This document shows, in pieces, positions 29,916 to 56,989 of a DNA stretch of 64,000 nucleotides (position 1 is the first letter of the stretch; every line of letters starts with the position of its first letter). Both the position numbers and the translations under genes were made by a program. Source of the DNA: Elusimicrobiaceae bacterium. Its GTDB lineage: Bacteria > Elusimicrobiota > Elusimicrobia > Elusimicrobiales > Elusimicrobiaceae. The notes beneath the pieces were generated by a model. That model searched no databases. It worked only from the letters and a program-made list of their open reading frames with translations, and was not told the DNA's origin. The DNA is taken from NCBI GenBank assembly GCA_017528825.1, contig JAFXOI010000001.1, forward strand, positions 1-64,000. The letters are read 5' to 3'.

Positions 29916-30082
29916 TTCCCATTAAAAAACCCCCGAGATGAGTATCGGGGGTTACTGGTATCAGGCCGGGTAGCCTGTACCAGCCGGGGGATTGTAAGTT
30001 CAATCAAAGGTTGCCCGTCCTTGAGAATTATCACAGCCTCTGCAACAAAGCTGATTTCCTCTATGAGTAAATTACCCAACAA
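29885..30082 (-). pseudogene. Possible Phd/YefM-like antitoxin remnant
   Basis: The minus-strand frame following RNA copy C reads about 60 residues that include LIEEISFVAEAVIILKDGQP and then LIELTIP. This resembles the C-terminal half of Phd/YefM-type antitoxins, where a glutamate-rich helix leads to a strand, a D/N-G-K/Q-P turn and an aliphatic strand. It starts only with TTG, lacks the DNA-binding N-terminus and has no toxin neighbour. It would be a fragment at best. The resemblance is judged by eye and may be coincidental. Confidence 0.25.
29928..29953 (-). terminator. Terminator reading on the minus strand
   Basis: The stem AACCCCCGA / TCGGGGGTT is followed on the minus strand by TTTTTTAAT. 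There is no T-run on the plus side, so it appears built to end minus-strand transcripts coming through the structured RNA at 30081-30244. A second nested hairpin (CTGGTA...TACCAG) lies just beside it at about 29955-29983. Confidence 0.7.
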
Positions 30083-30244
30083 AAAGGGCAGCCCTCGTCA
30101 CTAGGAGTTAGCACACGCCCAGTAACGACGCTGCCCTAACCGTGTAATTCTTTACACAGTTAAATGGCTTCGCCGTTTTTGGGGTGCTAACTGTTGTTTT
30201 CATTTCAAACAACCGTTCCGTCTCTTCAACGGACCCAAAAACAG
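30081..30244 (-). ncRNA. Structured double-pseudoknot-type RNA, copy C (downstream of the cysteine-rich pilin)
   Basis: Read on the minus strand. The enclosing helix is CUGUUUUUGG (30244-30235) with CCAAAAACGG (30182-30173). Inside it are the hairpin CCGUU-GAAGA-GACGG, a second hairpin GUUGUUU/AAACAAC, and the strand AGUUAGCAC (30192-30184). That strand pairs perfectly with GUGCUAACU (30114-30106) in the loop of the last stem. A ten-pair hairpin AACUGUGUAA/UUACACGGUU comes next. The last stem is GGGCAGC/GCUGCCC, extended by UCGUUACU/AGUGACGA, and ends in UUUUU. The hairpin called H4 in the other copies is reduced to GGC-GAA-GCC here. A CATAAT -10-like box lies at 30291-30286. No known RNA family was recognised. 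Confidence 0.75.
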
Positions 30245-40795: not shown

Positions 40796-40992
40796 CTGTT
40801 TTTGGAACCGTATGAAGAATACGGCATACTGAAAAGTACAGAGCAACGCCAAAAACAGCCAATTTAGGCACAAAATAAACGGACTAATTACCCGGGTGTT
40901 TTGTGCCGAATGTTTGCCGTTCATTAGAACGGCAAACTACGGCTGTTTTCTACTGGCTTGGTTGCTCTGGCCCGGGAAAACGGCCGTTTTTT
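40796..40992 (+). ncRNA. Structured double-pseudoknot RNA, copy A (upstream of a pilin gene)
   Basis: H1 is CUGUUUUUGG (40796-40805) with CCAAAAACAG (40849-40858), ten pairs. H2 is CCGUAU-GAAGA-AUACGG and H3 is UACU-GAAA-AGUA. Pseudoknot PK1 is CAGAGCAAC (40839-40847) with GUUGCUCUG (40961-40969), nine perfect pairs. H4 is GGCACAAAA (40867-40875) with UUUUGUGCC (40899-40907). Its loop holds CCCGGG, which can pair with CCCGGG at 40971-40976 as PK2. H5 is GUUUGCCGUUC-AUUA-GAACGGCAAAC. H6 is GGCUGUUUUC (40941-40950) with GAAAACGGCC (40976-40985), followed by GUUUUUU. H6 plus the U-run is terminator-like and lies 38 bases before the pilin ATG. Confidence 0.8.
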
Positions 40993-53597: not shown

Positions 53598-55538
53598 CTA
53601 AAACAGCTCCGCCTGATGCGGTCCTTCTTCTTTTTCAGCAACTACAGTCGAGGAAGTTCCCTCTTGAGGAGCCGAAGTTTTCTTTTCCGCAGCCTCTGGC
53701 TGGGCGGCAGTTTCTTGTTTCTTAGGAGCTAAGCCCAATATTTCATCAATCTCTGCCGCTTCCACGACTTCTTTTTCTAACAGACGTTCAACCAATTTAT
53801 CAAATTGTGCACGGTGAGAAGTAATAATTTCCTTTGCACGAGCATATGCACTGTGCAATGTATCGGAAATTTCGCCGTCAATACGTTGTGCCATTTCTTC
53901 CGAATATTGGCGGTGGCGGGATAAATCCCGTCCTAAAAACACTTCACCTTCTTCTCCGCCCGGCAAAGCAATGGGACCTATTTTCTCGCTCATTCCCAGT
54001 TCCATAATCATCTTACGGGCATAAGCGGTTGCTTTATTCAAATCGTCGCTAGCACCGGAGGTGATTTCTCCAAATACCAACTCTTCCGAAGCTCGTCCGG
54101 CCAGTAAAATGCAAATCTTATCCAAGATTTCAGACTTACTGGTTAAAAATTTATCCTCTAGCGGCAACTGCAAGGTGTAACCCAGCGCTTGACCGCGCGG
54201 CACAATAGTCACTTTATGCACCGGATCGGAATGATGCGTTAAACGGGCCACGATTGTGTGCCCCACTTCGTGCGCGGCAATGATTTTCTTTTCTCTTTCT
54301 GAAATGATACGGCTCTTTTTTTGCGGACCGGCTAATACACGTTCCACCGCTTCGTCCATATCAGCATTGTCCACCGCTTCTTTATCGGCGCGCGCGGCCA
54401 AAATGGCGGCCTCATTCACTACGTTTGCCAAATCTGCGCCGACAAATCCGGGCGTTCCTTTGGCAATGATTTTCAAATCTACTTCGGAAGCCAGTTTGAC
54501 CTTTTTGGCATGCACCTTCAAAATTTCTTCGCGGCCTTTCAAATCCGGAGCTGGCACAGATACGTGGCGGTCAAAACGTCCCGGACGGACTAAGGCCGGA
54601 TCTAACACATCGGGTCGGTTGGTAGAGGCCATCAAAATAATACCTTGTTTACTTTCAAAACCGTCCAACTCAATAAGGAGTTGGTTCAAGGTTTGCTCTC
54701 TTTCATCGTGCCCGCCGCCAATACCGGCAAAACGTCTGCGGCCTACCGCGTCCAGCTCATCAATAAAGATAATGGCCGGAGCATTCTTTTTGGCCTGTTC
54801 AAACAGGTCCCGCACACGGGCTGCTCCAACGCCGACAAACATCTCTACAAATTCAGAGGCAGACGCACTGAAAAAAGCCACACCGGCTTCTCCGGCTACC
54901 GCTTTAGCCAGCAAAGTTTTACCTGTACCCGGAGCGCCATATAACAAGACACCTTTGGGTAATTTACCACCTAATTTTTGGAATTTTTTTGGATTTTTCA
55001 AAAACTTAATGACATCTTGCAATTCTTCTTTCGCTTCCTCTACGCCGGCCACATCTTTGAAAGTAATGGTTTGCTTAGAAGGGTCTTGCATTTTCGCTTT
55101 GCTACGAGCAAAGTTCATGGCACTTCTTCCGTCATTACGCTGCGGACGAATAAACACAAACCACCACAGACCAATCAATAGCACAATCCATAACACGTTA
55201 AACAAAATGTTACTGACCCAGCTATTGTCCGCCTGCGCCTTATAGGCCACTTGTTTGGATGTTAATTCTTTTACCAGTTCCGGATCTTCTATGCGCACGG
55301 TTTTGAACTGCGCTTCCTTGCCATCCGCATCTTTGAAAGTTCCGGTGATGAGCGTAGGAGCAACCGTTAAATTAGACACTTCTCCGGTAGCCACTTTCTG
55401 CTTAAAGTCAGAATAATCCAGTTCCTGTGTTTTACTGCCGGGACGATTAAACAAGAAAACAGCCACGGCAAAAATGGCCACCCACATCAAAATTTGATTG
55501 ACGGAAATAATCCGACGATGATTGTTTTTATTATTCAT
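53598..55538 (-). CDS. ftsH: ATP-dependent zinc metalloprotease FtsH
   Basis: This 646-residue membrane protease has two membrane helices (residues about 14-28 and 110-128) flanking a periplasmic loop. The AAA domain carries Walker [13 protein letters not shown] near residue 203 and the second region of homology, and the M41 protease motif is [13 protein letters not shown] near residue 420. The polar C-terminal tail is rich in Glu, Ala and Lys. It degrades unassembled membrane proteins and some regulators. It overlaps hpt by one base, a common hpt-ftsH arrangement. Confidence 0.97.
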
Positions 55539-56065
55539 TATTTCTTAAAAACTCCAATATACGGTAAATTGCGGTATAGTTCATCATAATCCAGCCCATA
55601 CCCGATTACAAATTCGTTCTCAATTTGGAAACCCACATATTTTGGGGTGATGTCAACTTTGCGATTGGCCGGTTTATCAAGTAAGCAACAAATTTCAATA
55701 CTGCCTGCTCCGCGGTTGGCTAAATTTTTTAGCAAATAATCTAAAGTTAAACCGGTATCTACAATATCTTCTACAATGACCACATGGCGGCCTTTGATAC
55801 TTTCACGCAAATCAAGCATCGTGCGCACTTCGCCGGTGGAATTGGTACCGCAATAGGAAGAAAGGCACATAAAGTCCATTTTGCAATCGATACTGATTTC
55901 ACGGAGCAAATCTGCATAAAACATAATACTACCGCGCAAAATACCTACAAACAAAGGTTCTTTCCCTTTATAGTCGGCAGAAATTTCTCTTCCTAATTCT
56001 GCGATTCTGTTTTTCAATTGTTCCTGCGAAATTAAAATACGTTCCAGCACCGGCATATTGGACAT
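55538..56065 (-). CDS. hpt: Hypoxanthine phosphoribosyltransferase
   Basis: This 175-residue type I PRTase salvages hypoxanthine (and guanine) to nucleotides. The PRPP loop is HVVIVEDIVDTGLTLDYL near residue 95, PLFVGILRGSIMFYADLL lies before it, and the C-terminal VIGYGLDYDELYRNLP is a family signature. A GGGAGG site lies seven bases upstream. It heads the long operon hpt-ftsH-glmM-pdxJ-glmS-nnrD. Confidence 0.95.
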   Translation of the reverse strand: MSNMPVLERILISQEQLKNRIAELGREISADYKGKEPLFVGILRGSIMFYADLLREISIDCKMDFMCLSSYCGTNSTGEVRTMLDLRESIKGRHVVIVEDIVDTGLTLDYLLKNLANRGAGSIEICCLLDKPANRKVDITPKYVGFQIENEFVIGYGLDYDELYRNLPYIGVFKK

Positions 56066-56172
56066 AATTTCCTCCCAAAATGGTATATATACAGCATACC
56101 TTTTTTAGAGAGCGCTGTGAAGGGGGAAAAAGGCAGTACCCCCCTAAAAATAATGATTCACTAAAAATTTGT

Positions 56173-56178
56173 TATACT
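56173..56178 (+). promoter_or_regulatory. Promoter -10 (TATACT) for RNA copy B
   Basis: TTTGTTATACT carries TG one base before the hexamer (extended -10). It lies 24 bases before the first helix of copy B, so a start at about 56185 would give a short leader. Copy D has the similar TTTGCTATAAC. Confidence 0.5.
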
Positions 56179-56201: not shown

Positions 56202-56411
56202 CTGTTTTTGGAACCGTTGAAGAGACGGTGCGCTTTTGGGATACCAAAGGCAATAGCGAAGTCCAAAAACAGCTCGTTATCAGGCACTACATACCGGAGC
56301 CGATCCCTTTGGTGTGTGGTGCCGAGCGTTTGCCGCATCTTTAGGTGCGGCAGACCACGGCTGTTATATTTGGGGTCAACTTCGCTAGGCTCTGATATAG
56401 CAGCCGTTTTT
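56202..56411 (+). ncRNA. Structured double-pseudoknot RNA, copy B (upstream of a pilin gene)
   Basis: H1 is CUGUUUUUGG with CCAAAAACAG (ten pairs). H2 is CCGUU-GAAGA-GACGG and H3 is CUUUUGG-GAUA-CCAAAGG. PK1 is AGCGAAGU (56255-56262) with ACUUCGCU (56379-56386), eight perfect pairs. H4 is GGCACUACAUACC (56283-56295) with GGUGUGUGGUGCC (56311-56323), 13 pairs including wobbles; its loop GGAGCC can pair with GGCUCU at 56388-56393 as PK2. H5 is GUUUGCCGCAUC-UUUA-GGUGCGGCAGAC. H6 is GGCUGUUAUAU (56359-56369) with AUAUAGCAGCC (56395-56405), followed by GUUUUU. The pilin ATG lies 33 bases after the U-run. Confidence 0.82.
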
Positions 56412-56443
56412 GTTGGGTTTCAAAACAGAAAAAGGAGAATGTT

Positions 56444-56989
56444 ATGAAACACAACAAACGGGGTTTTACCCTCATTGAATTATTAGTAGTCGTGCTGATT
56501 ATCGGCATTTTGTCAGCCATTGCTATCCCGCAATATCAGAAAGCCGTAGAAAAAGCAAAAGCAACCCAAGCTTTAACTCTTCTAAAATCGATTCAAACTG
56601 CTGAAAATGCTTATTTTCTAGCTAATGGGACTTATGCAATAAATGATTGGTCTCTACTTGACGTACAAATAGATTGGCCCGATTCAACAAAAAAATGGTG
56701 GGAAGGCGGGAAAATACCAAAAACCAATGGAGAGTGGGTTTTAGAAATTTTCCAATGGGGAACAACTTCGATTGTTATGGGAAGAATTGAAGGGAATCAT
56801 CAAGGCGGAGCTTTTATTTTACCTTTAATTCCATTTCCCGGTACAGATAAAATTTCTGCAAATCAAATTTATTGTGCAGAAAAGCGATGTTGCGGAACGG
56901 TATATAGGGGGACAGGTTATTGCGAAAAAATATTTGGAGGAACTAAAATTTATAGTGATGGTGGAGAAGATTGGTATAGTCTACCTTAA
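56444..56989 (+). CDS. Type IV pilin-like protein (downstream of RNA copy B)
   Basis: The 181-residue protein starts with the basic leader MKHNKRG and the prepilin site FTLIELLVVVLIIGILSAI; AIPQYQKAVEKAKATQALTL then continues the helix. The mature part has Trp-rich stretches (VQIDWPDSTKKWWEGG) and a cysteine-bearing end (IYCAEKRCCGTVYRGTGYC). AAAAGGAG precedes the ATG. Like the pilin at 41030, it sits right after a copy of the structured RNA. The leader and helix are close to those of the other pilins while the ectodomain differs, so the family varies mainly in its exposed part. Confidence 0.88.
   Translation: MKHNKRGFTLIELLVVVLIIGILSAIAIPQYQKAVEKAKATQALTLLKSIQTAENAYFLANGTYAINDWSLLDVQIDWPDSTKKWWEGGKIPKTNGEWVLEIFQWGTTSIVMGRIEGNHQGGAFILPLIPFPGTDKISANQIYCAEKRCCGTVYRGTGYCEKIFGGTKIYSDGGEDWYSLP

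What the first reader, a model, noticed from the sequence alone, without database searches (positions are those of the whole stretch)
56202..56411. Copy B: same fold with a 13-pair H4 and a second potential pseudoknot
Copy B keeps every helix of copy A and strengthens H4 to 13 pairs including wobbles. Its H4 loop GGAGCC can pair with GGCUCU placed right after the PK1 3' strand, the same relative place as the CCCGGG/CCCGGG pair of copy A. Two independent sequences giving the same second long-range pairing raise the chance that PK2 is real. The pilin ATG follows the U-run by 33 nt.
Basis: seen in the sequence. Interest (0 to 1): 0.7.

Follow-up and report, generated by a model that had tools for sequence, protein, structure and literature searches.

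The report
Two-state RNA leader of pilin genes
In gut Elusimicrobia a roughly 210-letter RNA segment sits in front of dozens of pilin and other surface genes, appears built to flip between two folds that hide or free the start of the gene, and carries a self-complementary loop that should let two copies stick together; it matches no family in Rfam 15.

Summary
The sequence feature is real, but the headline claim (PK2) is not supported. Copy B (56202-56411) is one of 48 copies in its genome; relatives occur in 61 of 198 genomes of the phylum examined. No Rfam family matches. PK1 is certain: 183 of 187 parsed copies keep it (control 149 of 3000). PK2 is at chance: 10 of 183 copies versus 10.1 permuted, and both its strands lie inside better-supported helices.

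What the H4 loop does conserve is a palindrome: 177 of 187 loops hold one, 125 of 187 of six letters or more (10.6 in shuffles), with 20 different palindromes. This is the comparative signature of a symmetric kissing loop, so RNA dimers are likely.

The leader also holds mutually exclusive pairings: H1b pairs with H1a or with the 5' arm of the U-tailed hairpin H6. PK1 is nested with the second choice, so it need not be a pseudoknot. After the U-run a covarying hairpin (H7) buries the start site.

Best reading: a new cis-acting on/off RNA switch for pilins, glycosyltransferases, surface proteins and a few defence genes, with PK1 as locus-specific toehold and H4 as dimer contact. The signal is unknown; nothing was tested at the bench.

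The parts
56168..56178 (+). extended -10-like promoter motif TTTGTTATACT; transcript start expected a short way upstream of the element
   Evidence: 31 of 43 own copies have TATAMT within 90 nt upstream; the simple scanner did not call it
56202..56213 (+). H1a, CUGUUUUUGGAA: 5' strand of H1; also complementary to the strand in front of the Shine-Dalgarno site in many copies
56213..56229 (+). H2 hairpin
56230..56251 (+). H3 hairpin
56254..56262 (+). PK1 5' strand UAGCGAAGU
56263..56272 (+). H1b, CCAAAAACAG: pairs with H1a or, with the following nucleotides (AACAGCUCGU, 56268-56277), with H6a
56283..56323 (+). H4 hairpin, 17 pairs in the minimum-energy fold
56300..56306 (+). H4 apical loop CC-GAUC-C with palindrome GAUC: predicted kissing-loop dimer contact
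56328..56355 (+). H5 hairpin
56357..56376 (+). H6a: 5' arm of terminator-like H6; alternative partner of H1b
56379..56387 (+). PK1 3' strand ACUUCGCUA in the H6 apical loop
56388..56393 (+).
56389..56407 (+). H6b: 3' arm of H6
56407..56411 (+). U-run after H6
   Evidence: 4 or more U after GCCG in 153 of 187 copies
56409..56455 (+). H7: UUUGUUGGGUUUCA with UGAAACACAACAAA; start codon in the stem, Shine-Dalgarno in the loop region
   Evidence: in copy B the helix carries one mismatch, so copy B is not among the 90 copies scoring 8 or more
56432..56437 (+). Shine-Dalgarno AAGGAG
   Evidence: sequence
56444..56989 (+). type IV pilin-like gene, 181 aa, MKHNKRGFTLIELLVVVLIIG
40796..40991 (+). copy A of the same leader, H4 loop AC-UAAUUA-C
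30081..30244 (-). third, diverged short-form copy; PK1 complementarity kept by eye; my anchors did not parse it
   Evidence: 39.8 bits, E 5.5e-9; sequence

Best explanation
It is a cis-acting mRNA leader that switches between two mutually exclusive folds. OFF fold: H1a pairs with H1b, and the U-tailed hairpin H6 forms and acts as a terminator; in transcripts that read through, H7 buries the start codon and/or Shine-Dalgarno site. ON fold: the PK1 strands pair first and act as a toehold; H6a, which shares CUGUU with H1a, then displaces H1a from H1b. PK1 plus H1b:H6a make one long nested helix around H4 and H5, so H6 cannot form. The freed H1a (or freed H6b) pairs with a strand (S3) just in front of the Shine-Dalgarno site and opens H7. 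H4 is a self-complementary kissing loop, so two leader RNAs with the same palindrome can dimerise. PK1 is different in every parsed copy of the genome and so could keep strand exchange within the right molecule. Shown by comparative sequence analysis: PK1, H1-H6, H4 palindromes, H7, and S3 strands in a part of the copies. Supported more weakly: H1b:H6a. Inferred: termination, ON/OFF assignment, toehold order, dimerisation in the cell. Unknown: the signal that sets the switch.
For: PK1: 183 of 187 copies, cross-copy control 149 of 3000. H4 palindromes: at least 6 nt in 125 of 187 loops versus 10.6 shuffled; 29 of 47 unique loops versus 3.3; H5 loops as a natural control 9 of 187 versus 6.8 shuffled. 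The palindrome does not recur elsewhere in the same leader beyond chance (24 of 177 versus 19.5 permuted), so no partner inside the molecule was found. H1b:H6a: mean pairing score 10.42 versus 10.22 permuted (sd 0.025, maximum of 1000 permutations 10.31); for the 31 copies with non-consensus H6a 9.91 versus 9.26, 0 of 2000 draws as high. Energies of the two folds are close: mean -87.8 and -86.1 kcal/mol for 40 own copies. H7: score 8 or more in 90 of 139 copies, 15.3 shuffled, 33.1 with another copy's strand. S3 strands: complementary to H1a (8 or more) in 69 of 187 versus 12.6; to the H6b side in 11 of 187 versus 0.4. The sense strand is the functional one: 178 G-U cells versus 36 A-C cells in the consensus pairs. 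Median distance to the start codon 39 nt, with a start assigned in 183 of 187.
Against: No transcript, probing or reporter data. Permutation controls ignore relatedness, so significance is overstated. H1b:H6a rests on a nearly invariant H6a. 85 of 187 copies fit neither S3 type by my thresholds. The pattern scanner does not call H6 a terminator (its loop limit is 8 nt), and U-runs could serve H7 rather than termination, although 41 of 49 copies without a strong H7 still have 4 or more U. If PK1 forms fully together with H1 and H6, the first fold would win by up to about 14 kcal/mol. Short-form copies such as window 30081-30244 keep PK1 without an obvious H4, so dimerisation cannot be essential to the core switch. 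10 of 187 H4 loops have no palindrome.
Confidence: 0.6

Rival explanations
1. A metabolite- or second-messenger-binding riboswitch: the near-invariant letters of H1, the H4/H5 junction and H6 form an aptamer for an unknown ligand, and the two folds are its expression platform.
For: Near-invariant unpaired and paired letters over many copies; many copies per genome over one functional theme, as known for c-di-GMP riboswitches in front of pilin genes (recalled; PMC6366702 seen in search listing only).
Against: No Rfam riboswitch matches. The most conserved letters are largely explained by the shared H1a/H1b/H6a/H6b strands; I see no separate conserved junction that looks like a pocket. No ligand can be named.
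Confidence: 0.2
2. A structural mRNA leader without switching: it protects the mRNA or insulates it from upstream transcription, and has been copied along with duplicated pilin genes.
For: Own-genome copies mostly precede pilins (37 of 43 by motif).
Against: In relatives 62 of 140 downstream genes lack the pilin motif and include glycosyltransferases, OMP barrels, lipoproteins and methylases. Pilin number does not predict leader number: G011 has at least 80 pilin hits and 6 leaders. Covarying alternative pairings and start-site hairpins would be unnecessary.
Confidence: 0.12
3. A DNA-level element: a mobile or recombination sequence (inverted ends CTGTTTTTGGAA...TTCCAAAACAG) that shuttles promoters or pilin cassettes.
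For: 12-bp inverted ends in a subset of own copies; 48 copies here versus 0-9 in the 40 relatives (one search scored at most 12 per genome, so it cannot say more).
Against: G-U to A-C ratio 178:36 marks the sense RNA; orientation and spacing to the start codon are fixed; inverted ends are absent from most relatives; I did not search for a transposase or target duplication.
Confidence: 0.05
4. PK2: the H4 loop pairs with the strand after PK1.
For: 6 possible pairs in copy B (sequence).
Against: 10 of 183 copies versus 10.1 permuted; both strands sit in supported helices; the loop conserves self-complementarity instead.
Confidence: 0.03

Closest known systems
OLE, GOLLD and ROOL homo-oligomeric RNAs (PMC12286853; passages and section 8 read)
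   Same: Symmetric kissing loops whose inner letters switch between palindromes; that paper uses the switch GGCC to GAUC or AGCU in OLE as evidence for an intermolecular contact, the same argument used here.
   Different: Those are large RNAs with several contacts and solved structures; this is a ~210-nt mRNA leader with one candidate contact and no structure.
HIV-1 DIS kissing loop (PMC7357161, passages; abstracts)
   Same: A palindromic 6-nt kissing loop (table of PMC7357161) in a leader; the 2+6+1 loop layout of DIS is recalled, and 70 of 187 loops here have it; a leader with alternative long-range folds (recalled).
   Different: Bacterial, many paralogs with many palindromes; no sequence relationship claimed.
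Guanidine-II riboswitch (PMC7357161, passages)
   Same: Bacterial leader with a palindromic loop-loop contact (two nucleotides).
   Different: Two short stem-loops, each binding guanidine; different fold and size.
Terminator/antiterminator attenuators and two-level riboswitches (general knowledge)
   Same: Mutually exclusive helices before a U-tailed hairpin, and a start-site hairpin.
   Different: No upstream ORF, tRNA-like or ligand signature recognised; a locus-unique toehold and a dimer loop are added.

Membership tests
Any Rfam 15 family | score at or above the curated gathering threshold | tested here: not met
   only two tRNAs in the window; best match at this locus E 3.2 at permissive settings
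Cis-regulatory RNA leader | consistently placed in front of a start codon, sense strand structured | tested here: met
   start codon assigned for 183 of 187, median 39 nt; Shine-Dalgarno match of 4 or more letters in 174 of 183; G-U 178 vs A-C 36
Intrinsic-terminator attenuator | U-tailed hairpin with a competing antiterminator | tested here: inconclusive
   4 or more U in 153 of 187; competing H1b:H6a covaries; simple scanner negative; termination itself untested
Riboswitch | binds a ligand that sets expression | not testable with these tools
   none
Homodimerising RNA (symmetric kissing loop) | loop keeps self-complementarity while its sequence changes | tested here: met
   177 of 187 loops, 20 palindromes; orthologous leaders carry different palindromes
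Homodimerising RNA (symmetric kissing loop) | dimer observed physically | not testable with these tools
   none
Pseudoknot (PK1) | PK1 forms at the same time as H1 and H6 | tested here: inconclusive
   pairing certain but equally compatible with a nested fold

The most novel reading that the evidence does not exclude
The genome carries a network of about 48 surface-gene leaders that talk to each other as RNA. Leaders sharing a palindrome (14 with UAAUUA, 9 with GAUC, 6 with UUAUAA, 5 with UCAUGA among 43 parsed own copies) can dimerise across genes. A unique PK1 toehold in each leader (43 of 43 distinct) gives it a private address that keeps the shared switching strands from invading the wrong mRNA. 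Expression of one pilin would then depend on how many same-class leaders are present: an RNA-only way to choose among surface variants.
Probability: 0.2. Interest if true: 0.92.

Novelty: new variant of a known kind. Interest (0 to 1): 0.77.

Why it matters
If right, it is a new class of bacterial regulatory RNA combining transcriptional and translational control in one leader. It would also offer a strong comparative case for mRNA homodimerisation in bacteria (20 palindromes over 187 copies), where functional RNA dimers are described as rare (PMC7357161 abstract; PMC12286853 section 8). It would help explain how host-associated Elusimicrobia with tens of pilin genes choose which surface and defence genes to express, and it gives an orthogonality rule (shared switch, private toehold) useful for RNA circuit design.

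Tried and rejected
PK2: rejected, also for the strand 5' of the PK1 partner (38 of 183 versus 38.7 permuted). PK1 as a guide to another place in the same locus: 0 matches of a 9-mer, 0.33 expected. PK1 as a fast-mutating tag: orthologous leaders keep PK1 or change it by compensation (L050/L057; L133/L195), so the diversity is between paralogs. H4 palindrome pairing with another part of the same RNA: no excess. H4 as a DNA dyad for one protein: too many different palindromes, and the palindrome is off-centre in the loop (2+6+1, 2+4+1, 3+6+1, 3+6+2). Viral carriage: 7 pattern hits in viral contigs, none of them a covariance-model hit at 1e-6. Three non-Elusimicrobia pattern hits (L090, L129, L138) gave no model hit. 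Literature: searches found no description of this element; the E. minutum genome paper is not held. Four copies fail PK1. L144 and L109 come from one MAG (Cd354_bin122) with near-identical H4-H5 blocks, and L210 looks like two copies joined, so I suspect assembly chimeras, untested; L103 is unexplained.

Rows dropped before counts: of 112 + 73 model hits I left out 3 truncated ones (L104, L190, L197), one weak hit (L125 6790) and two repeats (L215, L068); 36 own copies and L039 were added. The 216 rows became 204 distinct and 192 after removing those over 93% alike. 5 of 192 were not parsed by my anchors (L088, L084, L077, L078, L039); by eye all five keep a PK1. H7 was counted only on the 139 copies with a start 24-75 nt away and a Shine-Dalgarno match of 4 or more.

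Full report
What is there. Copy B lies between a gene on the other strand (ORF 55538-56065, minus) and a 181-aa type IV pilin-like gene starting at 56444. The 261 nt around it fold with z -8.9. A DNA search of the window's own genome (1.53 Mb, 41 contigs) gave 40 matches. A covariance model built from 36 of those copies (R1; alignment A1) gave 56 rows. I count 48 places after removing opposite-strand and partial echoes; two of the 48 are cut by contig ends. The window itself holds three: copy A 40796-40991, copy B 56202-56411, and a diverged short copy on the minus strand at 30081-30244 (39.8 bits).

Where else. With R1, 22 of 41 genomes in a relatives search (own included) and 61 of 198 genomes in a phylum search have a match. 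Matches fall in the own family and in one other family of the phylum (f10), and not in the 16 listed genomes of the sister family in the same order. Weak matches (best 42.2 bits, E 1.2e-9) exist in a single-contig 1.6-Mb genome of another genus of the family. Rfam 15 has nothing: the gathering search finds only two tRNAs in the window and the permissive search of this locus gives no E-value below 3.

What follows it. A start codon could be assigned for 183 of 187 copies, median 39 nt downstream. In the own genome 37 of 43 downstream genes carry the pilin motif, and one more (L014) does if its start is placed as. In relatives 78 of 140 do. Of 60 non-pilin proteins scanned with Pfam, 9 match glycosyltransferase family 2, 3 family 8, 2 family 9, 5 outer-membrane barrels and 3 EcoRI-type methylases; others are HAD-like or polysaccharide-synthesis proteins. 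PADLOC names the two methylases tested MTase_II, and L067 best matches an HKD+Snf2 model. The theme is surface structures plus a few DNA-defence genes. Pilin number alone does not predict leader number: all 90 genomes of the family searched have pilin-type N-termini (12 to at least 80 hits).

Observation check. The helices are real: RNAalifold on the 36 copies gives 55 pairs, 31 of them with changes on both sides in at least one copy. PK1 is present in 183 of 187 parsed copies; pairing the 5' strand of one copy with the loop of another reaches the same score in 149 of 3000 draws. In the own genome all 43 parsed copies have different PK1 strands. Their mean identity stays near one third even between copies whose H4-H5 block is 88-93% alike (7 pairs). 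PK2 fails: 10 of 183 copies reach a score of 5, 10.1 in permutations. In copy B its strands are part of the H4 stem (GGAG/CUUU) and of the H6 apical stem.

What the H4 loop conserves. Listing all H4 loops shows UAAUUA, GAUC, UUAUAA, UCAUGA, AGCU, UUCGAA, UUGCAA, GGCC, CUCGAG, GUAC, CUGCAG and others. 177 of 187 contain a palindrome of at least 4 nt and 125 of at least 6 (shuffled loops: 10.6). Among 47 distinct loops 29 have at least 6 (shuffled 3.3). H5 loops, a natural control, do not (9 of 187; shuffled 6.8). The commonest layouts are 2+6+1 (70) and 2+4+1 (44). Orthologous leaders, such as those of the EcoRI-type methylase or of the zinc-ribbon gene, carry different palindromes. Since letters next to each other in a small loop cannot pair with each other, this points to pairing between two molecules. 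PMC12286853 (section 8 read) uses the same argument for OLE and GOLLD. The palindrome does not recur in the rest of the same leader beyond chance (24 of 177, permuted 19.5). Exceptions: 10 of 187 loops, among them six with a simple small hairpin end (CGACGG or CAAAAG).

Alternative pairing. H1b (AACAGUCGU) is complementary both to H1a and to H6a (ACGGCUGUU); H6b resembles H1b and H6a resembles H1a. The H1b:H6a score exceeds 1000 permutations (10.42 versus 10.22, sd 0.025), also among the 31 copies with a changed H6a (9.91 versus 9.26). PK1 is nested with H1b:H6a, so both can form one long helix around H4 and H5. In 40 own copies the two folds have similar computed energies (means -87.8 without PK1, -86.1 with PK1 nested; adding the whole PK1 duplex to the first would favour it by about 14 kcal/mol, an upper bound). 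H6 followed by 4 or more U occurs in 153 of 187. By order of synthesis PK1's 3' strand appears after H6a and before H6b, so PK1 could act as a toehold for H6a to take H1b from H1a before H6b is made; this step is inference.

Start-site control. After the U-run, 90 of 139 copies can form a helix of score 8 or more with the Shine-Dalgarno/start region (15.3 shuffled, 33.1 with another copy's strand); 66 of the 90 include the start codon. Some are 19 pairs long (L015, L018, L030). Strands in front of the Shine-Dalgarno site are complementary to H1a (8 or more: 69 of 187, shuffled 12.6) or to the H6b side (11 of 187, shuffled 0.4): just the two strands that the alternative fold sets free. 85 of 187 copies fit neither by my thresholds.

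RNA or DNA. In the consensus pairs of 36 copies there are 178 G-U and 36 A-C cells, so the sense-strand RNA is what selection sees.

Verdict. A new cis-regulatory RNA class, most likely a two-level attenuator with a predicted dimer contact; PK2 is rejected. Limits: no wet data; permutation tests ignore relatedness; most copies come from MAGs; the signal is unknown. Not-in-print rests on searches of an open-licence library that lacks most subscription journals.

Noticed in passing
window 30081-30244, minus strand (L039); also L077, L078, L224, L225, L230: Short-form leaders that keep H1, PK1 and H6 but seem to lack H4; possibly an older core of the family.
   Followed up: partly
L007, L011, L019, L032 (own genome contigs C3, C5, C4, C5): Extra coding sequence between the pilin start codon and the conserved GFTLIEL stretch; in L007 and L032 it contains a palindrome GTCATTCCCGAA...TCGGGAATCT, found 3 times in the genome. 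Looks like in-frame repeat insertions.
   Followed up: partly
upstream of several copies, e.g. L009, L010, L011, L026: An extra small hairpin between the -10-like motif and the ACAATTT box just before the element (ACAATTT-like in 164 of 187).
   Followed up: no
L144 2555-2761, L109 1996-2204, L210 261-467: Copies with unmatched PK1 strands, perhaps assembly chimeras or true gene conversion between copies.
   Followed up: no
leaders in L145, L160, L198 (EcoRI-type methylase) and L067, L178 (helicase-like): The same leader type precedes DNA modification or defence-like genes in related species, suggesting a regulon of variable surface and defence functions.
   Followed up: partly
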